Shown in pieces: positions 13,682 to 23,990 of a stretch of 64,000 nucleotides of DNA. The notes beneath the pieces were generated by a model that did not search any database, was not told the DNA's origin, and saw only the letters and a list, made by a program, of their open reading frames with translations. The stretch's first letter is position 1; every line of letters starts with the position of its first letter. Source of the DNA: Prescottella subtropica. Its GTDB lineage: Bacteria > Actinomycetota > Actinomycetes > Mycobacteriales > Mycobacteriaceae. Where the stretch lies: contig NZ_SKCH01000007.1 in the NCBI RefSeq assembly GCF_005434945.1, forward strand, positions 124,001-188,000, read 5' to 3'. A program made the translations under genes and the position numbers.

Positions 13682-14872
13682 GTGGCCAGAACCTTCATGC
13701 GCCGCTGGTTTCCTGGGGGACCGGACGATGATCCTGCGGCGATCAGCGCCTACAACGCGATGACGACCGCGTTCCTGCAGACCGACCGGCTCCTCGCCGA
13801 CATCGAGGACGGTGTCGCGGCGTCCCGCGACACCGACCCGACCCGTGATGTCGTGTCCCGGTGGGCTCCGGTGCGGGAGAGTCACGCGCAGGCGACGTCG
13901 ACGTACCTGCAGTTGCAGCGCCCCGAACCCGACTCCCCGTACGCGGCGGCCGCCGTCTACCAGGACTGCACCCGGGCGCTCGAGCAGGTGTCGGCGGACA
14001 TGACCGCGTTCCGGGACCGGTTCGGGGAGAACCTGTCCCGCGCGCGGGCGGCCCGGCAGATCGCGGCCGGGGCGGTGCAGCAGGCACGGGTCGCCGCGAA
14101 CCGGGCCGTCGCCGCCCTCGACCGGCCGGAGAGTCTGCCGTTCCTGCAGTACCCGTCGGTGATCGCCGCCGTCGACGTCCTCGCCGCGCAGATCCGCACA
14201 CTCGACACGGTCGCCGACAGCGCCGATCAGCAGGAGGCCGCGGCCGCGGTCACCACGGCGGCCGCCTCCGTGCACACCGCACTGTCGGCCGCCCCCGGAC
14301 GGGGGACGGAAGCGCAGAACGCGGTCCGGTCGATCGCGACCCGGATCAGTGCGGTCGCCACCCGTGCCGACCAGTTGGGGCCGGTCCGCTCGGCGTTGCT
14401 ACGGGAATTCAGTGCCGCCTGCTCGAACGACCTGGTCGACAACGACCGGATCGCCGCCGCGGCGGCGGCCGCCGCCGAGCAGGAGGTGCAGGCCGCCCGC
14501 GGCGAGATCACCGCCGGCCGGCCCGAGGCCGCCCTGGCGCACTGCGCGTCGGCCCGCGACCAGTTGCGGGAGGCCGACGCCGCCGTGGACGCGGTCACCG
14601 ACCGACTGCGGTCCCTGCACGACGTACGCGCGAACCCCGCCCGGACGGCGGACAAGGTGCGGTTCCGGTTGCGGGACGCACAACAGTTGGCGATGCAACG
14701 CGACCTCGTCGGTGAGTGGGGGTCGGTCCTCGACGCCCAGGTCGACCGCATCGACCGTGCGTGTGTCGCACTCGACGGGGTGCATCCCGACTATTGGACC
14801 TACACGACCGACCTCGAGGCGATCGACCGCTTCGTCAGCGGGGTCGTCGACCGCATGAGAGGACGCGGATGA
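13682..14872 (+). CDS. Ter-operon alpha-helical protein, unknown function
   Basis: About 396 residues, almost wholly helical and alanine-rich, with long amphipathic stretches (about 30-330) consistent with coiled coils. A basic N-terminus (RTFMRRWF) and a more mixed C-terminal segment (VHPDYWTYTTDLEAIDRF) flank them. No signal peptide or membrane span is seen, and no enzyme motif is recognised. It is not clearly TelA-like. Start choice is uncertain: GTG at 13682 or ATG at 13697. Its stop overlaps the next start as ATGA, so it is the first gene of a translationally coupled seven-gene operon. I infer a structural or scaffold role. Confidence 0.75.
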   Translation: MARTFMRRWFPGGPDDDPAAISAYNAMTTAFLQTDRLLADIEDGVAASRDTDPTRDVVSRWAPVRESHAQATSTYLQLQRPEPDSPYAAAAVYQDCTRALEQVSADMTAFRDRFGENLSRARAARQIAAGAVQQARVAANRAVAALDRPESLPFLQYPSVIAAVDVLAAQIRTLDTVADSADQQEAAAAVTTAAASVHTALSAAPGRGTEAQNAVRSIATRISAVATRADQLGPVRSALLREFSAACSNDLVDNDRIAAAAAAAAEQEVQAARGEITAGRPEAALAHCASARDQLREADAAVDAVTDRLRSLHDVRANPARTADKVRFRLRDAQQLAMQRDLVGEWGSVLDAQVDRIDRACVALDGVHPDYWTYTTDLEAIDRFVSGVVDRMRGRG

Positions 14873-16071
14873 CCCGTCACCTTGCCGACCCCGAACCCCG
14901 GATCGGGCAGGCCCTGACACATTTCCACCAGCTCGATCCGCAGACCCGGGACCGGCTGTTCCTGCACCGGCCGACCCCGGTCACCGACACCGACACCCGG
15001 GAACGCCTGGCACTCGCGCTCGGCGCCACCCTGTACGTGCCGGGGAACCGGCCGGATCTGGCCGACACCATCGCCCGACGCTGCACCGAGGGGGTGATGT
15101 CGATGGTGATCGACCTCGAGGACGCGGTCGCCGACGACCAGGTCGACGCCGCCCTCGCCGGTGCGGTCGACGCCCTCGACACGCTCGCCGGCACTCCGGC
15201 CGCCGGGATGCTGCTGTTCGTGCGGGTCCGCACCGCCACCGAGATCCGTGCCGTCACCGCGGCACTCGGCGCCGGAGTCGAGGCACTGACCGGGTTCGTG
15301 GTCCCGAAGTTCACCGCCGCCACCGGCGGCGACACCCTGACCGCGGTGCGGGAGGCGTCGGAGACGTCGGGCAAGCACCTGTACGTGATGCCGGTCCTCG
15401 AATCCCCGGTCCTGGCGTATCGGGAGGCCCGCGACACCGAACTGCAGGCGATCGCGGCCCTGCTCGCCGAGCATCGGGACCGGGTACTCGCGGTGCGGAT
15501 CGGGGCCACCGACATGTGCGGGCTGTTCGGGATCCGCCGCGACCGCGACCTGACGATCTACGACGTGCGCGTCGTCTCCGACGTGATCGCCGGCATCGTC
15601 AACTATCTGGGCCGCGCGGACGGCACCGGGTTCGTGATCACCGGCCCGGTGTGGGAATACTTCGCCGACCACGAACGCATGTTCCGGCCGCAACTACGGG
15701 AAACCCCGTTCGCGGAACAGGACGCGGTGCGGTTCCGACAGCAACTCGTCAGCCGCGACCTCGACGGACTGCTGCGGGAGATCGCCCTCGACCACGCCAA
15801 CGGCATCCAGGGCAAGACCGTCATCCATCCCTCGCATGTCGCGCCGGTGCACGCGCTGGCCGCGGTCACCGCGGAGGAGTACCACGACGCGGTCGACATC
15901 CTCGGCGGCGACACCGGCGGGGTCCTCGCGTCGGGGTACGGCAACAAGATGAACGAACTCAAACCACACCGGCAGTGGGCGCAGCGGGTCGTGCTGCGCG
16001 CCTCGGTGTTCGGTGTGACCAACCCGGGAGTGACCTTCGTGGACCTGCTGACCGCCCTGGCGGCCCGATGA
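14869..16071 (+). CDS. HpcH/HpaI aldolase / citrate-lyase beta (CitE-like) family protein
   Basis: 400 residues. The TIM-barrel C-C lyase signatures are visible: LYVPGNRPDL (about 55-64), the metal-ligand region VIDLEDAV (about 80-87), FVRVRT, VVPKF and GIQGKTVIHPSHV in the last third. CitE-like proteins cleave or form C-C bonds in acyl-CoA or keto-acid substrates; here the length and neighbours match the version seen in Ter-linked biosynthetic operons, where it is thought to prepare a side chain for a nucleoside-like product. The substrate is inferred, not shown. It overlaps both neighbours by ATGA. Confidence 0.85.
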   Translation: MTRHLADPEPRIGQALTHFHQLDPQTRDRLFLHRPTPVTDTDTRERLALALGATLYVPGNRPDLADTIARRCTEGVMSMVIDLEDAVADDQVDAALAGAVDALDTLAGTPAAGMLLFVRVRTATEIRAVTAALGAGVEALTGFVVPKFTAATGGDTLTAVREASETSGKHLYVMPVLESPVLAYREARDTELQAIAALLAEHRDRVLAVRIGATDMCGLFGIRRDRDLTIYDVRVVSDVIAGIVNYLGRADGTGFVITGPVWEYFADHERMFRPQLRETPFAEQDAVRFRQQLVSRDLDGLLREIALDHANGIQGKTVIHPSHVAPVHALAAVTAEEYHDAVDILGGDTGGVLASGYGNKMNELKPHRQWAQRVVLRASVFGVTNPGVTFVDLLTALAAR

Positions 16072-17363
16072 CCACCACCGCCGCCTCTGCCGCGCCGGCG
16101 TGGGCGACCGCACGATTCGGCCTCACCCTCCACGACAGCGACAGCGACAGCGACAGTCGGTGGCGGGTCACCGATCTCGTGCAGCCCGGCCTGCGCCGCA
16201 ACCCGCGGCGCGCACACCTGCTGGTGTCCACCGTCCTCGGCAAGCATGTGCCGACCGACCCGGTGCGGGTGCGCGCGGCCGCGGACGACCTCGCCGAGAA
16301 GGTGACCGCGGTCCTCGGCGCCGATGTCGCCGCCGACGCGATCGTCCTCGGATTCGCGGAAACCGCAACCGGTCTCGGGCATGCGGTCGCCGCCCGGATG
16401 GGTGCCGCCTGCTATCTGCACTCGACCCGCCGCCGCACCCCGGGTGTCCCGGTCCTGGGCGGGTTCGAGGAGGGGCATTCGCACGCCACCTCGCATCTGC
16501 TGCAGCCGACCTCCCCGGACCTGTTCACCGGTGATGCGCCGCTGGTTCTCGTCGACGACGAGATCTCCACCGGCGCCACCGCCGTCGACGCGATCCGGGC
16601 CCTGCACCGGATCACGGCCCGCGACCGGTACGTGATCGCGTCGCTGGTCGACATGAGCGAACCCCACCACCGGGCGGCGATCGATGTGGCCGCCGCCGAA
16701 ATGGGAACCCGGATCGACCACGTCGCGCTCGCCGCCGGCCGCACCCACCTCCCGGACGGGCTCACCGCACAGGTCACCGCGCTGGAAGCGCCGACCCTGA
16801 ACCCGGTCGCCGACCGGGTCGGGGAGGTGGCAGACGTTCGGATCGCATGGCCCGCGCACGTGCCCGACGGCGGCCGCTACGGCATCCTCGCCGCCGACGC
16901 CGGCGCGTTCACCGCCGCCACCGCGGCGGCCGCGGACACCGTCGTCCCGCACCTGGATCCGGCACGCCCGGTGATCGTGATCGGGCACGAGGAGTTGATG
17001 TACCTGCCGCTGTGCATCGCCGAACATCTCGCGCACCGAGGGTTCGCGGTCCGCTACCAGACCACCACCCGGTCCCCGGCGTACGTCCACGATCATCCCG
17101 GCTACCCGCTGCGCCGCGGCTTCGAGTTCTGTGCCCCGGAGCCGGATCCCTATGCTCGCCGCTACCTGTACAACGCCGTCCGGCCCGATCCGGGACCGGA
17201 TGCGCAGCTGCTGGTGGTGATCGACAGCCCCGCCGACACCGTCGAACTGCGTTCTCCCGGTGGGCTTCTCGACGTTCTCACGGCCGCCGGCCACGACGTC
17301 GTCGTCGCTGTCGTCCCGACCACCGACCACCAGGCCCTCACCGCCGCGAGGAACCACCCATGA
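16068..17363 (+). CDS. Phosphoribosyltransferase-TRSP domain protein
   Basis: 431 residues. The N-terminal half has a type-I PRTase fold with the PRPP-binding loop LVLVDDEISTGATA (about 159-172) and an upstream LGFAETATGLGH. The C-terminal half (about 240-431) matches the TRSP domain that accompanies such PRTases, with VIGHEELMYLPL and a late cysteine-bearing FEFCAPEPDPYARRYLYN. The predicted role is to link a base-like group to PRPP. Near the N-terminus four Asp-Ser pairs (about 23-30) come from a short GACAGC repeat at 16135-16158. Starts by ATGA overlap with the CitE-like gene and ends by ATGA with the next. Confidence 0.85.
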   Translation: MTTTAASAAPAWATARFGLTLHDSDSDSDSRWRVTDLVQPGLRRNPRRAHLLVSTVLGKHVPTDPVRVRAAADDLAEKVTAVLGADVAADAIVLGFAETATGLGHAVAARMGAACYLHSTRRRTPGVPVLGGFEEGHSHATSHLLQPTSPDLFTGDAPLVLVDDEISTGATAVDAIRALHRITARDRYVIASLVDMSEPHHRAAIDVAAAEMGTRIDHVALAAGRTHLPDGLTAQVTALEAPTLNPVADRVGEVADVRIAWPAHVPDGGRYGILAADAGAFTAATAAAADTVVPHLDPARPVIVIGHEELMYLPLCIAEHLAHRGFAVRYQTTTRSPAYVHDHPGYPLRRGFEFCAPEPDPYARRYLYNAVRPDPGPDAQLLVVIDSPADTVELRSPGGLLDVLTAAGHDVVVAVVPTTDHQALTAARNHP

Positions 17364-18487
17364 CCACCATCCCTGTCGCGACACCGCCGTTGACCGGCCC
17401 CGGCTTCGGCTCCTACGACGCCGACGAGGTCACCTGGCTGCTCAAGGACCTCTCCGACCTCGACCTCGAGGCCGACCTCGCCGACCGCGAGAAGGCCATC
17501 CAGGCGGGGACCGCGCACTACGCCGAATCCCTGCCCGTCGAATACCAGCCCGACGCCGCCTACCGGGAACTCTTCGACACCGCCCTGGCCGACTCCGCGG
17601 CGCGTCTCGCGCACGCGGTCGGCACCGTCACCGAACTCCTCGTCGCCGAACGCGGCCCGAACCTGACCCTGGTGTCGCTGGCGCGGGCCGGTACTCCCGT
17701 CGGCATCCTGATCCGCCGCTGGGCCAGGCGATTCCATCAGGTGTCGTGGCCGCACTACGCGGTCTCGATCGTCCGCGGCCGCGGAATCGACACCGTCGCC
17801 CTCGACCACATCACCGGCCGCCACGACCCCGGCTCGGTGGTGTTCGTCGACGGCTGGACCGGCAAGGGCGCCATCACCCGCGAACTCACCGCTGCACTGG
17901 ACGCCTACGCCGCCGCCGGTGGCCCGCGCCTGTCGGACGATCTCGCGGTCCTCGCCGACCCCGGCCACTGCGTCCGCACCTACGGCACCCGCGACGACTT
18001 CCTCATCGCGTCCGCCTGCCTGAACTCCACCGTCTCCGGGCTGGTGTCGCGCACCGTCCTGAGCGACCGGCACATCGGGCCCGGCGAATTCCACGGCGCC
18101 AAGTTCTACCGCGACCTCACCGGCCAGGACGTGTCGAACCGCCTGCTGGACACCGTCACCGCCGAGTTCGACGCCGCCCACCCGGCGGCCGCCGTGGCCG
18201 CCGGCGCGATCGCCGCGGGGGACCGGACACCGTCGTGGACGGGATGGGCGTCGGTGGACGCGGTCCGCGTCGAGTACGGCATCGGCTCGGTGAACTTCGT
18301 CAAACCCGGTGTCGGGGAAACCACCCGCGTCCTACTGCGACGCATCCCGTGGAAGGTCCTCGTCCGCGACGCCGACGCCCCCGAACACGCCCACATCCGC
18401 ATGCTCGCCGCCGCCCGCGACGTCCCCGTCGAGGTCGTGCCCGACCTCGCGTACTCGTGCATGGGCCTGATCAAGGAACAGCCGTGA
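17360..18487 (+). CDS. StiP-type PRTase-related protein with PELOTA-like C-terminal domain
   Basis: 375 residues. The central part has a PRTase-like pattern: SLARAGTPVGILIRR (about 106-120) and SVVFVDGWTGKGAIT (about 159-173), the latter in the position of the PRPP loop. The C-terminal ~60 residues (IPWKVLVRDADAPEHAHIRM onward) look like an L7Ae/PELOTA RNA-binding-type domain. This family is often labelled cysteine protease StiP; the visible sequence favours a phosphoribosyltransferase-fold enzyme. It probably acts with the preceding PRTase on the same pathway. It overlaps neighbours by ATGA (start) and GTGA (stop). Confidence 0.82.
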   Translation: MTTIPVATPPLTGPGFGSYDADEVTWLLKDLSDLDLEADLADREKAIQAGTAHYAESLPVEYQPDAAYRELFDTALADSAARLAHAVGTVTELLVAERGPNLTLVSLARAGTPVGILIRRWARRFHQVSWPHYAVSIVRGRGIDTVALDHITGRHDPGSVVFVDGWTGKGAITRELTAALDAYAAAGGPRLSDDLAVLADPGHCVRTYGTRDDFLIASACLNSTVSGLVSRTVLSDRHIGPGEFHGAKFYRDLTGQDVSNRLLDTVTAEFDAAHPAAAVAAGAIAAGDRTPSWTGWASVDAVRVEYGIGSVNFVKPGVGETTRVLLRRIPWKVLVRDADAPEHAHIRMLAAARDVPVEVVPDLAYSCMGLIKEQP

Positions 18488-19347
18488 CCGCACGTTCGGT
18501 GCTGGTGGCCACCGACCTCGACCGCACCATGATCTACTCCCGAACCGCCGCCGGCGAGGAGCAGTTCGCGGCCACCGCGCCGGTGTGCGTGGAGATCTAC
18601 GACGACGCCCCGCTGTCGTACATGACCGCCACCGCCCACACCCTCCTCGCCGACCTGACCGCGCGCACGGTGGTCGTGCCCACCACCACCCGCACCCCCG
18701 CCCAGTACCGGCGGATCACCCTGCCGGGCGGCCCGTATCGGTACGCGGTCACCAGCAACGGCGGCGCCGTCCTCGTCGACGGCCGGCCGGATCCGGTGTG
18801 GCGGCAGCGGATCGACCGGGCCGTCGCTGCCGCCGGCCCGCCGGTCACCGCGGTCGTCGATGCACTGGGCACCCGCATCGACGACGGCTGGGTGCGCAGC
18901 CTGCGGACCGCCGACGACCTGTTCTGCTACCTCGTCGTCGACACCGCCGCCCAACCCGACGGCTTCGTCGCCGCCTGGCGGGCGTGGTGCGAGCCGCGCG
19001 GCTGGAACGTCTCCCAGCAGGGCCGCAAGATCTACACGATGCCGAACGCGGTCACCAAGAGCGCCGCCCTGCGCGACGTCCACGACCGTCTCGTCGCCGA
19101 CGGCACCCTGGACCCCGGCAGCCGGGTCCTCGCCGCCGGTGACGGTGTCCTCGACATCGACCTCCTCGAACACGCCGACGCCGCGATCCGCCCCCGCCAC
19201 GGCGAACTCGAGGACACCGGCTGGCAGCACCCGGACGTCGCCGTCACCGCGGCCCGCGGTATCACCGCCGGCGAGGAGATCCTCACCTGGTTCCACCACC
19301 ACACCGCCCCCACCGAAGCACTTCTCCCGCAAAGGAAGTCGATGTGA
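18484..19347 (+). CDS. HAD-superfamily hydrolase of the Ter biosynthetic operon
   Basis: 287 residues. HAD motif I is ATDLDRT (Asp11 nucleophile, Asp13 acid/base), motif II is probably the VVPTTTRT region, and motif IV is AAGDGVLDIDLL. The layout with an inserted cap (about 60-190) fits C2-type HADs such as sugar- or nucleotide-phosphate phosphatases. In this operon the likely task is dephosphorylating the ribosylated intermediate; that is inference from neighbours. The GTG at 18484 overlaps the upstream TGA, and the stop overlaps the next GTG. Confidence 0.88.
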   Translation: MTARSVLVATDLDRTMIYSRTAAGEEQFAATAPVCVEIYDDAPLSYMTATAHTLLADLTARTVVVPTTTRTPAQYRRITLPGGPYRYAVTSNGGAVLVDGRPDPVWRQRIDRAVAAAGPPVTAVVDALGTRIDDGWVRSLRTADDLFCYLVVDTAAQPDGFVAAWRAWCEPRGWNVSQQGRKIYTMPNAVTKSAALRDVHDRLVADGTLDPGSRVLAAGDGVLDIDLLEHADAAIRPRHGELEDTGWQHPDVAVTAARGITAGEEILTWFHHHTAPTEALLPQRKSM

Positions 19348-20540
19348 CCCACCAGCTGACCAAAGGCCAGAACGCGCCCCTGCACTCCGACACGATCGTC
19401 GTCTCCGTCGCCCTGTCGGCGCCGGCCGACGTGTCCGCACTGTTGCTCACCGAATCGGGGAAGGTGCGCACCGACGCGGACTTCGTCTTCTACAACCAGC
19501 CCACCGGCCCCGGTGTGCAACTGGTGACCGGCGCCGCCGGGACGAACCTGCGGATCACCACCGGCGGGATCCCCGCCGACATCGACAAGGTCCGCGCGAT
19601 CATCACCCTGGACGATCCGGGTGCCGCGTTCGGGCAGTTCCCGGCTCCGACCGCGCACGTCGCCGACGCGTCCGGGAACCCGCTGTACGAGTACAGCATC
19701 GACGGACTGTCCAGCGAGTCCGTCGTCATCGCCCTCGAGATCTACCGCCGCCAGGACACCTGGAAGGTGCGCGCCGTCGGGCAGGGATACGCCGGTGGGT
19801 TCGCGGCCCTGGTCACCGACCACGGCATCACCGTCGACGACGCACCCGCGCCTGCACCTGCACCGACACCGCCCCCGGCGCCCGCACCGCAGCCCTCGTA
19901 CACGCCGCCGCCCGCCCCCGCGCCCCCGGCGGCGCCCGCCGAGGTCAATCTCACCAGGGGGCGTCCCGTCAGCCTCGCCAAGGGACAGAAGGTGAGCCTG
20001 CGTAAGGACGGTGGTGTCGCACTGACGATGGTGAAGATGGGTCTCGGCTGGGATCCGGTGGAGAAGCGCGGCATGTTCGGCAGCCGCGCCGTCGACATCG
20101 ACCTCGACGCCTCCGCAGTCCTGTTCGCCGACGACCAGATCGTCGACGTCTGCTACTACGGGCAGCTCCGCTCGAAGGACGGCTCCATCCACCACCAGGG
20201 CGACAACCTCACCGGCGCCGGTGACGGCGACGACGAGGTGATCAACGTCGACCTCACCCGCATCCCCCCGTACGTCACCACCGTCCTGTTCATCGTCACC
20301 TCCTACAAGGGACAGACGTTCGCGCAGGTCCAGAACGCGTTCTGCCGGCTCGTCGACGCCACCACCGACAGCGAACTCGCCCGCTACACCCTCCACGGCG
20401 GCATGCCGTTCACCGGCATGGTGATGGCCAAGGTGTTCCGCGGCCCCGACGGCTGGAAGCTCCAGGCGATCGGTGACGGCATCCAAGCCAAGCACCCCGG
20501 CGAGGCCGCACCGCAACTGGCGCCGTTCGCCCGGAACTGA
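19344..20540 (+). CDS. Double-TerD protein with proline-rich linker
   Basis: 398 residues. First TerD-like domain (about 1-165): LTKGQNAPLHSD, TDADFVFYNQP and GQGYAGGFAALVTDHGI. A Pro/Ala linker of about 35 residues follows, then a second, fuller TerD domain (about 205-385) with SLAKGQKVSLRK, MGLGWD, DIDLDASAVLF and HHQGDNLTGAGDGDDE, the intact calcium-type acidic loop. The first domain lacks the DLDAS acidic strand, so probably only the second binds metal. GTG at 19344 overlaps the HAD stop and is preceded by AAAGGAAG. It is co-transcribed with the biosynthetic genes. Confidence 0.88.
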   Translation: MTHQLTKGQNAPLHSDTIVVSVALSAPADVSALLLTESGKVRTDADFVFYNQPTGPGVQLVTGAAGTNLRITTGGIPADIDKVRAIITLDDPGAAFGQFPAPTAHVADASGNPLYEYSIDGLSSESVVIALEIYRRQDTWKVRAVGQGYAGGFAALVTDHGITVDDAPAPAPAPTPPPAPAPQPSYTPPPAPAPPAAPAEVNLTRGRPVSLAKGQKVSLRKDGGVALTMVKMGLGWDPVEKRGMFGSRAVDIDLDASAVLFADDQIVDVCYYGQLRSKDGSIHHQGDNLTGAGDGDDEVINVDLTRIPPYVTTVLFIVTSYKGQTFAQVQNAFCRLVDATTDSELARYTLHGGMPFTGMVMAKVFRGPDGWKLQAIGDGIQAKHPGEAAPQLAPFARN

Positions 20541-20567
20541 GCACACCCGAACGAAGGAGGAGCGACA

Positions 20568-22115
20568 GTGCAGCTGACCTGCGGGCAGAACATCGTGCTG
20601 CCGACCACGACACTGCGGTTCACCGCCACCGGTGACACCGCACTCGACGTGTCCGCGTTGGTCACCGACACCGCCCTGCGGGCACTGTCGTCCGAGGATT
20701 TCGTGTTCTACAACCAGCCGCACACGCGTGGCGTCCGGATGGGGGAGGGCAGCGTCGAGATCGACCTCGACGCTGTCCGCCCCGACGCCCACGCGGTGCT
20801 GTGCATCGCCAGCGTCGACCCCCTCGCCGCCGGGTCCGTCGTCACCACCGTCACCGCGGCCCTGACCGACCCGGCGGGGACACCGGTCGCCGCAGTGGAC
20901 GTCGACTGCCGGTCCGCCGAAACCGCGGTGATCTGCTGGGAGCTGTACCGGCGGTCCGGGCAGTGGAAGGTCCGGGCCGTCGGCCAGGGCTACGCCGACG
21001 GACTCGCCGGCCTGATCACCCACCACGGCGTCGACGTCGACCCCGGTGACACCGACCCCGGATCCACCTCGGAACCGATCCCGGACGCCGGAACCTACGG
21101 GCCGATCGAACCCCTCGACCCGAACCACATCGTCGAACGATTCACCATGATCATGGAAGATGCGGCCCGCTCCGCCGGCGCCCTGATCGCTGCCCGCAGC
21201 TTCGCCGAGAACCGTCTCGACCGGGAACTGACCGCCGCCGTCGCCGACCCGGCCACCCGCAACAGCGCCCACACCGCCGGCATCCGCGACCAGGCCCGCC
21301 GTCGGCACGACACCGTCGTCGCCGACGCCGACACCCGCTACCGTCGGGACGCCGCCCACCTCGACACCGAACTGCGCACCATCGGCCCGCTGTTGCCGCG
21401 GTTGTTCGCCGACTGGAACGCCCCCGCCTGGACCGCCGGCACCCCGGAATCCGGTACGGCCGACGGGATCCGGATCGGTGACCTGTCCGCCCCCGGGTGC
21501 GGGCCCCTCCGCGTCCCGGTCTGCCTGCCGTTCCCGCTGAGGCAACCGCTGCACATCCTGGGCGCCGACACCCCGGCGACCGCGTCCGTCACCGCCGCCG
21601 CCGTCCTCCGGATCCTGGCCGCCGACCCGGACGTCGTCCTCGACGTCGTCGACCTGTCCGGTGGCCTCCGCCCGCTCGCCGACGGATTCGCCCACCGTGG
21701 GGGAGTCACGATCACCCGAGCCGACGACATCGGCCCCTACCTCGACACCACCGCGGCGGCCGCCGAACTCGCGCTCCTCGACCGCGGGACCCCGCACAGC
21801 GTTCCGCCGGCGCCGCGGCTGATCGTGCTCGACCACTTCCCCTACGGTTACGACCCGAGGCAGCTACCGGCCATCGCGTTCCTCACCGAACACGGCCCGG
21901 CACTCGGTGTCTCCACCGTCCTCGTCTCCGACGACCCCGCCGCGGTCGAACAGATCCACCCCGACCTGCCGCACCGCAGCTACGCCCTGCCCGTCGCCGG
22001 CAACGACGACTGGCGCGACCCCTGGACCTCGAACCCGTGGACGTTCACCCCCGACCGGGCCCCCGCCGACATCGGCCGCGTCGTCGACGTCCTCACACAC
22101 GCCACGAGGCGGTAG
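20568..22115 (+). CDS. TerD domain fused to a P-loop-ATPase-like domain with degenerate Walker A
   Basis: 515 residues. TerD-like domain at about 1-160 (EDFVFYNQP, GQGYADGLAGLITHHGV). A helical, Arg/Ala-rich stalk follows (about 185-280). The last ~220 residues have the spacing of FtsK/HerA-like ATPases: PFPLRQPLHILGADTPATAS (about 321-340) where Walker A would be, but without the GK[ST], and APRLIVLDHFPYGYD (about 415-429) where Walker B would be, then LGVSTVLVSDDP as a sensor-like strand. I infer an inactive or nucleotide-independent relative that could scaffold DNA work. The GTG start follows AAGGAGGAGC. It is the last gene of the operon. Confidence 0.72.
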   Translation: MQLTCGQNIVLPTTTLRFTATGDTALDVSALVTDTALRALSSEDFVFYNQPHTRGVRMGEGSVEIDLDAVRPDAHAVLCIASVDPLAAGSVVTTVTAALTDPAGTPVAAVDVDCRSAETAVICWELYRRSGQWKVRAVGQGYADGLAGLITHHGVDVDPGDTDPGSTSEPIPDAGTYGPIEPLDPNHIVERFTMIMEDAARSAGALIAARSFAENRLDRELTAAVADPATRNSAHTAGIRDQARRRHDTVVADADTRYRRDAAHLDTELRTIGPLLPRLFADWNAPAWTAGTPESGTADGIRIGDLSAPGCGPLRVPVCLPFPLRQPLHILGADTPATASVTAAAVLRILAADPDVVLDVVDLSGGLRPLADGFAHRGGVTITRADDIGPYLDTTAAAAELALLDRGTPHSVPPAPRLIVLDHFPYGYDPRQLPAIAFLTEHGPALGVSTVLVSDDPAAVEQIHPDLPHRSYALPVAGNDDWRDPWTSNPWTFTPDRAPADIGRVVDVLTHATRR

Positions 22116-22136: not shown

Positions 22137-23990
22137 TCAGTCGTCCTCGACCTCGAGGCCGTATCCGGTGGCCATCGCCGCCAGATCGTCGTCGTGGCCC
22201 TGGCCGACGGCGCGAATTCGCCAGACGCCGTGCCGCCGGTAGATCTCGGTGAGGATCATGGTCCGTTCGACGGTGCCGGCGTCCAGCACGAACGTCGCGA
22301 AGGTGTGATCCGGGCCGTCGACGCCGACCGCGACCGCACCGAGGTCACCGAAGGTGCGGCCGCCCTCGATCGCCGCGGCGATCACGATGCGGTGGCATTC
22401 GTCGGGCAGTGCCGCGAGGTCGACCCGGATGCACTGCTCGCTGCTGCCGTCGATGGAGAGTGCGACCGCGTCGTCCCCGTCGGCGGGATTGTTGTAGAAC
22501 ACGAAGTCCTGATCCGAATCCACCCGCCGGTCCTCCCCGAGCAGGAAGGCGACGACATCGACGTCGAACTCGTCGCCGACATTCTCGGCCCGCCACGACA
22601 CGTTGACGGACCACACCGTCGGTGCCGCGGGTAGATCGACCGTCTGCCCACGCAGCAGGACCGGGGCGGACACCCGCGATTCGTGACGCATGTGCGGCGG
22701 GACGAACCCGGAGGTGACCCCGTCGTTCACGTCGGACTCCCGGATCACCGGCAGCCCGCGTGCCTCGACCCGCGGCATGCGCCGGTCGGTGTCGCCGCCC
22801 GACAACACGAGCACATCCGTGACCGCAGCGGTGAGGTTGAGCGAGGGGCGGGCACCGAGCTGGATGATGCGGGACCGCATCATCACGCATTCCAGGTGTG
22901 TCCCACCCATCAGCAGCACACGGCGTCCCCGCCACGCCGCACCCCTACCCGTGGCGGCCGGCACGGGAGCCGGGGCCGGAACGGGGGTCGGCACCGTCGC
23001 CGGAGCCACCACCTCGAGCACCGCGACACTCGGGATCGCGACGTTCGGGAGCACGGTGGGCTGCGACGCCTTCGGGACACCGGGGACGACCCGCGTCAGC
23101 AGGGCGTCCAACTGTGTCTCGGAGACGATCGGGATCCCCTCCGCGGCCGCCCGCCGCACCTTGGCGTTCGACGAGCCCGGGTCGTTGCAGACGACGACAC
23201 TGGTATGGCGGCTCACCGAATTCATGACGTCGAATCCGGCGGCGGACAGGGTGGCGGCGAGCGCGAGCCGCGGGGTACGTGTCGCGCCGCTGACGACCAC
23301 TTTCATGCCCTGCACGAGACCGACCGCCGGATCGAGCCGGCCCGGATTCCGGTAGTCGGACGGCACCCGCTGCACCTGATCCGGATACACTGCGGTGCGC
23401 CGGCCCGCGCAGTCGACGACGGGCAGCGGCAACTGCAGCGTCTCCGCCAGCGACACGCTGCGGGTGAAGATCTCGGTGAGGACCCGGGCGTCGTCGCCGG
23501 CGTCGTGCGCATGGAACTGCGGGACGTGCCAGTAGTCGGCGAGAGTGGCCAGCTGATGGTTGGGGACGTCGAGTTCGAGCCGCCGCGACAACGCCAGCGT
23601 GCACAGCCGATTCTCGATCGGGGTGTTCGCCCCGGCGCGCTGGAACTCCGCGTCCAGGAAGCCGTAGTCGAACGACGCATTGTGCGCGACCATCGTCCGG
23701 CCGGTCAGGAGTGCGGCGAACTCGTCGGCGATGTCACCGAACCGCGGTGCCCCCGCCAACCGGTCCGGGGTGAGACCGTGCACGTGGACGGGCCCCGGAT
23801 CGCATCCCGGATTCAGCAGCGTCGAGAACTCGCGTTCGACGGACCCGTCCTCCCGCAACACCAGTGCCGCCACACTCAGGATCCGATGCGACGCCGCCCG
23901 CATGCCGGACGTCTCGGTGTCGACCACTACCCACTTACGGCCCTTCGGTAGGCCTCGGGTCCCGGCCTCGTCGACCCCCGCGCTCGTCAT
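22137..23990 (-). CDS. DEDDh 3'-5' exonuclease-BRCT-TerD fusion protein
   Basis: 617 residues with four regions. A DnaQ-type exonuclease (about 18-180) has ExoI VVVDTETSG (Asp24, Glu26), ExoII AHNASFDYGFL (Asp108) and ExoIII HDAGDDARVL (His162, Asp167). A BRCT domain (about 226-300; GMKVVVSGATRTPRLALAAT) follows, then a Pro/Ala linker and a weaker BRCT-like segment (about 353-425; RGRRVLLMGGTHLE). The C-terminus is a TerD domain (about 440-617; DQDFVFYNNPADGDD). The catalytic set looks complete, so nuclease activity is likely. It converges on the TerD-ATPase-like gene with 21 bases between stops. Confidence 0.88.
   Translation of the reverse strand: MTSAGVDEAGTRGLPKGRKWVVVDTETSGMRAASHRILSVAALVLREDGSVEREFSTLLNPGCDPGPVHVHGLTPDRLAGAPRFGDIADEFAALLTGRTMVAHNASFDYGFLDAEFQRAGANTPIENRLCTLALSRRLELDVPNHQLATLADYWHVPQFHAHDAGDDARVLTEIFTRSVSLAETLQLPLPVVDCAGRRTAVYPDQVQRVPSDYRNPGRLDPAVGLVQGMKVVVSGATRTPRLALAATLSAAGFDVMNSVSRHTSVVVCNDPGSSNAKVRRAAAEGIPIVSETQLDALLTRVVPGVPKASQPTVLPNVAIPSVAVLEVVAPATVPTPVPAPAPVPAATGRGAAWRGRRVLLMGGTHLECVMMRSRIIQLGARPSLNLTAAVTDVLVLSGGDTDRRMPRVEARGLPVIRESDVNDGVTSGFVPPHMRHESRVSAPVLLRGQTVDLPAAPTVWSVNVSWRAENVGDEFDVDVVAFLLGEDRRVDSDQDFVFYNNPADGDDAVALSIDGSSEQCIRVDLAALPDECHRIVIAAAIEGGRTFGDLGAVAVGVDGPDHTFATFVLDAGTVERTMILTEIYRRHGVWRIRAVGQGHDDDLAAMATGYGLEVEDD

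What the first reader, a model, noticed from the sequence alone, without database searches (positions are those of the whole stretch)
13682..22115. Overlapping operon that probably makes and uses a nucleoside-like metabolite
The genes for a CitE-like lyase, a PRTase-TRSP protein, a StiP/PRTase-PELOTA protein and a HAD phosphatase overlap by ATGA or GTGA, and are followed by two TerD proteins. Two PRPP-type enzymes plus a phosphatase and a C-C lyase imply ribosylation of an unusual base-like unit and dephosphorylation to a nucleoside. Comparative-genomics work on Ter systems proposed such a product, but I know of no structure for it. An ATP-grasp ligase, which I recall from some versions, is not in this window.
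Basis: partly seen in the sequence, partly recalled or inferred. Interest (0 to 1): 0.82.

Follow-up and report, generated by a model that had tools for sequence, protein, structure and literature searches.

The report
Ter operon with two phosphoribosyltransferases
A stress-linked gene cluster in an actinobacterium very probably builds an unidentified ribose-bearing compound; the cluster type is already known, but structure comparisons here suggest a more specific and testable chemistry for it.

Summary
A predicted coiled-coil protein, a CitE-like lyase, PRTase_2-TRSP, StiP-PELOTA, a HAD phosphatase and a TerD-TerD protein follow with 4-base overlaps. The system type is known (Anantharaman et al. 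2012; not held, seen only through citing papers).

Results here:
- Of 99 actinobacterial loci, 94 keep CitE-PRTase-StiP-HAD in order and none shows an ATP-grasp; the own genome has none.
- In the genus, PRTase_2 (over cut-off), StiP, the upstream protein and TerD occur in the same 6 of 14 genomes.
- StiP, annotated "cysteine protease", models as a phosphoribosyltransferase plus an L7Ae-type RNA-binding domain. Its best match is CriT of Bcs3, which O-ribosylates with PRPP and works with a HAD phosphatase.
- The other PRTase is adenine-PRTase-like.
- The HAD matches PDB 6cj0/6d3v, "trehalose phosphatase".

"Makes a riboside" is supported. "Makes a nucleoside" is not established: an O-ribofuranoside or ribosylated RNA stays open. 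No activity or product has been shown.

The parts
13697..14872 (+). First gene of the operon, 391 aa (GTG 13682 possible start); probably coiled-coil, without a named family; overlaps the CitE gene by ATGA
   Evidence: No Pfam, NCBIfam, PADLOC or PHROGs match; a fragment of an actinobacterial homologue hits EzrA weakly, 22 bits, below its cut-off; homologue in 85 of 99 actinobacterial loci; in the genus only in the 6 of 14 genomes that have StiP and TerD
14869..16071 (+). CitE-like C-C bond lyase, 400 aa
   Evidence: PF15617 400 bits; E178, R210, D215 in 98 of 98; acyl-CoA and citrate lyases found by profile, best E 1.5e-11
16068..17363 (+). PRTase_2 + TRSP protein, 431 aa
17360..18487 (+). 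StiP + PELOTA_1 protein, 375 aa: PRTase fold plus L7Ae-type domain
18484..19347 (+). HAD phosphatase, 287 aa
   Evidence: D11, D13, T68, K192, G219, D220, D224 in 112 of 112; 6cj0/6d3v trehalose phosphatase E 9e-8
19344..20540 (+). TerD-TerD protein, 398 aa, GTGA overlap with the HAD gene
   Evidence: PF02342 256 bits, two stretches
20568..22115 (+). TerD domain + C-terminal extension, 515 aa
   Evidence: PF02342 70 bits
12216..13664 (-). Context: TerD + vWA-TerF protein, divergent neighbour
   Evidence: PF10138 248 bits, PF02342 74 bits
10335..11513 (+). Context: TerC-like membrane protein (DUF475)
   Evidence: PF04332 444 bits, PF03741 56 bits

Best explanation
It is the actinobacterial form of the Ter-linked PRPP pathway. 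PRTase_2-TRSP, an adenine-PRTase-like enzyme, puts 5-phosphoribose from PRPP onto a nitrogen acceptor. StiP, a second PRPP enzyme of CriT-like type, puts 5-phosphoribose onto a second acceptor, more likely a hydroxyl. The HAD phosphatase removes the 5-phosphate, leaving a small ribofuranoside. The CitE-like lyase trims or builds the acceptor and is an accessory step; in other lineages an ATP-grasp ligase adds another. TerD, TerF and TerC proteins bind or act on the product.
SHOWN here: predicted folds, motif conservation, operon structure, co-inheritance, no ATP-grasp found.
INFERRED: every enzymatic activity, the O-type reaction of StiP, the product, and its sensing by TerD.
Confidence: 0.5

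Rival explanations
1. RNA ribosylation: StiP uses its L7Ae-type domain to dock on a kink-turn or tRNA-like RNA and transfers 5-phosphoribose to it; the HAD removes the phosphate.
Against: The Asn of the L7Ae NE pair is Gly or Ala in 111 of the 112 motif copies shown. Modelling and dynamics in PMC5571608 (passages) gave fewer hydrogen bonds to a kink-turn than L7Ae. It leaves the APRT-like PRTase, the CitE lyase and TerD unexplained, and I would expect a HAD of this type to act on small molecules (inference).
Confidence: 0.15
2. Classical nucleoside pathway: both PRTases act on bases and the HAD gives a nucleoside.
Against: StiP lacks the vicinal acidic pair in 113 of 113 and matches CriT best; the HAD's solved relative is named for a disaccharide phosphate.
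Confidence: 0.2
3. StiP is a cysteine protease, as the Pfam description and record annotations say, and the cluster is a proteolytic stress system.
For: Pfam description of PF11202 and annotations.
Against: PRTase fold at pLDDT 91.6; no invariant Cys: the best column, C204, is Cys in 103 of 113 and lost in 10, among them phage ME3, two Pseudomonas plasmids and three rhizobial plasmids.
Confidence: 0.03
4. The PRTase domains only sense PRPP or nucleotides (as PyrR and PurR do) and regulate; no product is made.
For: PyrR and PurR are among the structural matches; L7Ae-type domain next to the PRTase domain.
Against: HAD and CitE catalytic residues are invariant or nearly so and tightly coupled with the PRTases; the PRTase_2 motif is fully kept.
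Confidence: 0.12

Closest known systems
Ter-linked biosynthetic genes of enterobacterial plasmids (E. coli IncHI2 plasmid L047, Klebsiella plasmid L051)
   Same: PRTase_2-TRSP, StiP, HAD and CitE homologues beside terZABCDE
   Different: Those have an ATP-grasp gene and the order ATP-grasp-PRTase-HAD-StiP-CitE; the window has CitE-PRTase-StiP-HAD, no ATP-grasp, a coiled-coil-like first gene, and 20-37% protein identity
Prescottella equi plasmid p1-WH99 locus (L046)
   Same: Same gene order, 81-87% protein identity for the first five genes
   Different: An extra vWA gene after HAD; on a plasmid
Bcs3 of the Hib capsule, CriT and CrpP domains
   Same: PRPP-dependent transferase of PRTase fold without a vicinal acidic pair, working with a HAD phosphatase; best structural match of StiP
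   Different: Fused, acts on a capsule polymer; StiP has an L7Ae domain; no sequence match to Bcs3 among the hits
PDB 6cj0 / 6d3v, named trehalose phosphatase
   Same: Match of the window HAD over residues 6-228, E 9e-8; nearly identical to the HAD of a Pseudomonas plasmid Ter cluster
   Different: Window HAD is 23% identical to that plasmid HAD
Acinetobacter phage ME3 Ter genes
   Same: PRTase, HAD and StiP in a row beside a TerD-like gene; described in PMC7824862 (passages)
   Different: No CitE or ATP-grasp match in the whole phage record

Membership tests
Ter-linked PRPP biosynthetic operon (Anantharaman et al. 2012; features as told in citing papers and Pfam names) | PRTase_2-TRSP, StiP-PELOTA and HAD genes together | tested here: met
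Ter-linked PRPP biosynthetic operon (Anantharaman et al. 2012; features as told in citing papers and Pfam names) | Next to TerD/TerC/TerF genes | tested here: met
   TerD-like gene in 94 of 99 loci, the other five on pieces of 5-12 kb
Ter-linked PRPP biosynthetic operon (Anantharaman et al. 2012; features as told in citing papers and Pfam names) | ATP-grasp ligase (in the proteobacterial versions seen; not treated as defining, since the phage ME3 and Rhizobium records lack it too) | tested here: not met
   0 of 99 actinobacterial loci; own genome none; ME3 and Rhizobium records none
Ter-linked PRPP biosynthetic operon (Anantharaman et al. 2012; features as told in citing papers and Pfam names) | A nucleoside-like product | not testable with these tools
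   no metabolite data
Type I phosphoribosyltransferase (PRTase_2 protein) | Fold and PRPP motif with vicinal acidic pair | tested here: met
Type I phosphoribosyltransferase (StiP) | PRTase fold | tested here: met
Type I phosphoribosyltransferase (StiP) | Vicinal acidic pair in the PRPP loop | tested here: not met
   D164 followed by Gly or Ser in 113 of 113; so StiP is not filed as a canonical nucleobase PRTase
CriT-type PRPP O-ribosyltransferase (StiP) | Same catalytic fold | tested here: met
CriT-type PRPP O-ribosyltransferase (StiP) | Two acids from separate loops replacing the DD pair | tested here: inconclusive
   D164 invariant; a partner such as D144 is invariant but was not placed in space
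Cysteine protease (StiP annotation) | Invariant catalytic Cys | tested here: not met
   no invariant Cys column among 113
L7Ae/PELOTA RNA-binding domain (StiP C-terminus) | Fold and Pfam match | tested here: met
L7Ae/PELOTA RNA-binding domain (StiP C-terminus) | Full kink-turn motif with the NE pair (motif recalled) | tested here: inconclusive
   Glu, Thr and Arg kept in 113 of 113, Asn replaced in the copies shown
HAD phosphatase | DxD, T, K, GDxxxD catalytic set | tested here: met
   112 of 112
CitE-like lyase (HpcH/HpaI) | Metal-binding E and D (positions recalled) | tested here: met
   E178 and D215 in 98 of 98

The most novel reading that the evidence does not exclude
StiP is an RNA-directed, CriT-like PRPP enzyme: its L7Ae domain docks on a structured RNA and its PRTase domain O-ribosylates it, the HAD removing the 5-phosphate, so that the Ter stress system marks RNA with ribose. 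This joins two features that I have not seen linked: the best fold match to an O-ribosylating enzyme and the nearly invariant kink-turn-type motif.
Probability: 0.12. Interest if true: 0.88.

Novelty: new member of a known kind. Interest (0 to 1): 0.5.

Why it matters
The pathway is widespread on plasmids: 2554 of 72,556 plasmid records match this PRTase at E 1e-5, 1929 of them over at least 80% of its length. Its product has been open since the 2012 proposal. The results here narrow the test. PRTase, StiP and HAD form the core, found also without Ter genes nearby on rhizobial plasmids. StiP should be assayed as a PRPP enzyme, O-ribosylation included, with a HAD partner, not as a protease. A crystal structure of a near-identical relative of a Ter-cluster HAD already exists (6cj0/6d3v), filed under another name. 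A bean-nodulating Rhizobium with the core on its plasmid would give a simple, harmless test organism.

Tried and rejected
Cysteine protease reading of StiP: rejected by fold and by lack of an invariant Cys. Chance adjacency: rejected by conserved order and overlaps. ATP-grasp hidden elsewhere in the genome: not found. In 18 other genomes the nine of the same family show only weak matches in frames of 1129-1279 aa; seven of nine of another family (f4) have a strong match, all far from the operon; of those seven, five were fetched and none of the five has a TerD match nearby. Defence-system label: no PADLOC match for seven proteins, no PHROGs match for five. The upstream gene as a missing ligase: unlikely, a homologue looks coiled-coil; its fold was not predicted. 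StiP and PRTase_2 as detectable sequence homologues: not significant. TRSP fold: not resolved; barely tests residues beyond 233. Profile match of the HAD family to 6d3v (E 2.7e-91): not used as evidence, because the profile contained the near-identical plasmid HAD. Link to rhizolotine, a rhizobial riboside that I recall: no paper in the library holds the word, and one symbiosis-island paper holds none of the terms tried; left as a lead. Literature searches; in the listings and passages seen none tells an enzymatic test of PRTase_2 or StiP, but most subscription papers are not held.

Caveats on counts: the 99 loci are L046, L052-L064 and L067-L071 (18 of the 20 regions) and the 80 loci (L072-L151). 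L065 and L066 (divergent) and all proteobacterial and viral loci were left out of that count. The same species may occur twice. For the residue counts the window and 113 loci were used; fragments under 75% of the enterobacterial length and identical copies were dropped, leaving 113 StiP, 110 PRTase_2, 112 HAD and 98 CitE. In one search a seventh genus genome (G349) has a weak PRTase_2 match of 20 bits, below cut-off; one genus genome (G348) is 79% complete.
Full report
OBSERVATION. The range holds seven genes on the + strand. The first six are linked by 4-base overlaps: 13697-14872, 14869-16071, 16068-17363, 17360-18487, 18484-19347, 19344-20540; then 20568-22115 after 27 bases. Pfam gives C-C_Bond_Lyase, PRTase_2 + TRSP, StiP + PELOTA_1, TerD + TerD and TerD; the first gene and the HAD have no Pfam match. 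The HAD matches PDB 6cj0 and 6d3v at E 9e-8. Around them lie TerC-like (DUF475) and TerD-vWA genes. The genome has ten TerD matches, eight of them on the contig of the window.

CONSERVATION. In a phylum sample PRTase_2 passes its cut-off in 16 of 346 genomes, and in the genus in 6 of 14, a seventh having a weak match of 20 bits. StiP, the first gene and TerD are in exactly those 6 of 14; the other 8 show none of them, not even a TerD. Of 99 actinobacterial loci, 94 hold CitE-PRTase-StiP-HAD in that order on one strand; L121, L131, L145 and L146 are cut by contig ends and L143 lacks the lyase nearby, with only weak PF15617 matches in its genome. The first gene has a homologue in 85 of 99, directly upstream of the lyase in 33 and on the other strand in 52. 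None of the 99 has a match to the enterobacterial ATP-grasp at E 1e-4, a search that does find such proteins at 25-28% identity elsewhere. A TerD-like gene is found in 94 of 99. Five genes are under purifying selection against two relatives (dN/dS 0.16-0.36). The 80 loci lean to close relatives (see the caveats under Tried and rejected).

VARIANTS. The enterobacterial and Pseudomonas plasmids looked at carry ATP-grasp, PRTase, HAD, StiP, CitE. Phage ME3 has PRTase-HAD-StiP, and Rhizobium plasmids (p42d is the symbiotic plasmid, recalled) have PRTase-StiP-HAD with no Ter gene annotated within 10 kb; neither whole record searched has a CitE or ATP-grasp match. 33 plasmid records hold a StiP at least 95% identical to the Rhizobium one, 31 of them with Phaseolus vulgaris as source. 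Similar cores lie on plasmids of Mesorhizobium and another Rhizobium; in a R. leguminosarum plasmid an IS element lies between the PRTase and StiP genes. Two divergent actinobacterial loci, L065 and L066, have PRTase, StiP and a HAD beside TerD; Pfam confirms this for L066, PELOTA there being below cut-off. So PRTase, StiP and HAD are the core; CitE and ATP-grasp are additions.

The kink-turn-type motif of the StiP C-terminal domain is nearly invariant: K315, E320, T322, R323, L326, R327 and R328 in 113 of 113, but the Asn of L7Ae is Gly or Ala in 111 of the 112 copies shown. That the domain resembles L7Ae was already published (PMC5571608, passages).

HAD: catalytic residues in 112 of 112. 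The window protein alone finds 6cj0/6d3v, named trehalose phosphatase, at E 9e-8. The HAD between PRTase and StiP on a P. aeruginosa plasmid is nearly identical to 6d3v (528 bits). The family profile gives E 2.7e-91, but that profile contained this plasmid HAD, so the figure is inflated by construction. That this enzyme was shown to cleave trehalose-6-phosphate is my recollection of a 2018 paper that is not held. A phosphatase that accepts a disaccharide phosphate fits an O-ribosyl-5-phosphate substrate at least as well as a nucleotide; this is inference.

CitE-like: E178, R210 and D215 in 98 of 98; nearest solved relatives by sequence are acyl-CoA and citrate lyases.

MECHANISM. Best reading (0.5): two PRPP enzymes, one nucleobase-type and one CriT-like, followed by HAD dephosphorylation, give a small ribofuranoside; the lyase tailors it; Ter proteins sense or use it. 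Rivals are a classical nucleoside (0.2), RNA ribosylation through the L7Ae domain (0.15), PRPP sensing without product (0.12) and protease (0.03). The first four cannot be separated by sequence.

PRIOR ART. The Ter-linked biosynthetic genes and the idea of a nucleoside-like product are from Anantharaman, Iyer and Aravind 2012, not held and seen only through passages of PMC7824862, PMC4633105, PMC9933665, PMC8115787, PMC7159879, PMC3710099, PMC5571608 and PMC6790187. The last notes ter genes in one R. equi strain and in R. [quoted passage not shown] equi, which fits the patchy presence seen here. I cannot say whether the 2012 paper already described the actinobacterial order.

SCORE. Known kind, product still unknown, with sharper and cheaper tests: interest 0.5.

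Noticed in passing
22137-23990 (-): A fusion of a DnaQ-like exonuclease (RNase_T), BRCT and TerD domains lies convergent to the operon.
   Followed up: no
L049 13902-17158; L168 8753-12009: A PRTase-StiP-HAD core with no Ter gene annotated nearby sits on Rhizobium plasmids; the record of L049 has no CitE or ATP-grasp match; 33 plasmid records hold a StiP at least 95% identical to it. Could make a nodule riboside (speculation).
   Followed up: partly
L048 15004-15762: The HAD of a Pseudomonas plasmid Ter cluster is nearly identical to PDB 6d3v/6cj0, 'trehalose phosphatase': apparently a solved Ter-pathway enzyme filed under another function.
   Followed up: partly
L152 7925-13306: An IMG/VR contig of 67.5 kb has CitE-PRTase-StiP-HAD in actinobacterial order followed by an ATP-grasp gene, without a TerD match in the locus.
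   Followed up: no
L155 8129-9313 and L156-L159: Seven of nine genomes of family f4 have a strong ATPgrasp_Ter gene (117-128 bits) far from their PRTase operon; the five fetched have no TerD match beside it.
   Followed up: partly
L065 7971-10831; L066 7483-10477: Divergent PRTase-StiP-HAD genes next to TerD in distant actinobacteria; their StiP C-terminus has an L7Ae-like NE pair.
   Followed up: partly
window 13697-14872: Unnamed, probably coiled-coil family found in the genus only where Ter genes are; its position and strand differ between the loci.
   Followed up: partly
G000:C14:60638-61192 and C23:329754-330251: Two further TerD genes lie on other contigs of the genome.
   Followed up: no
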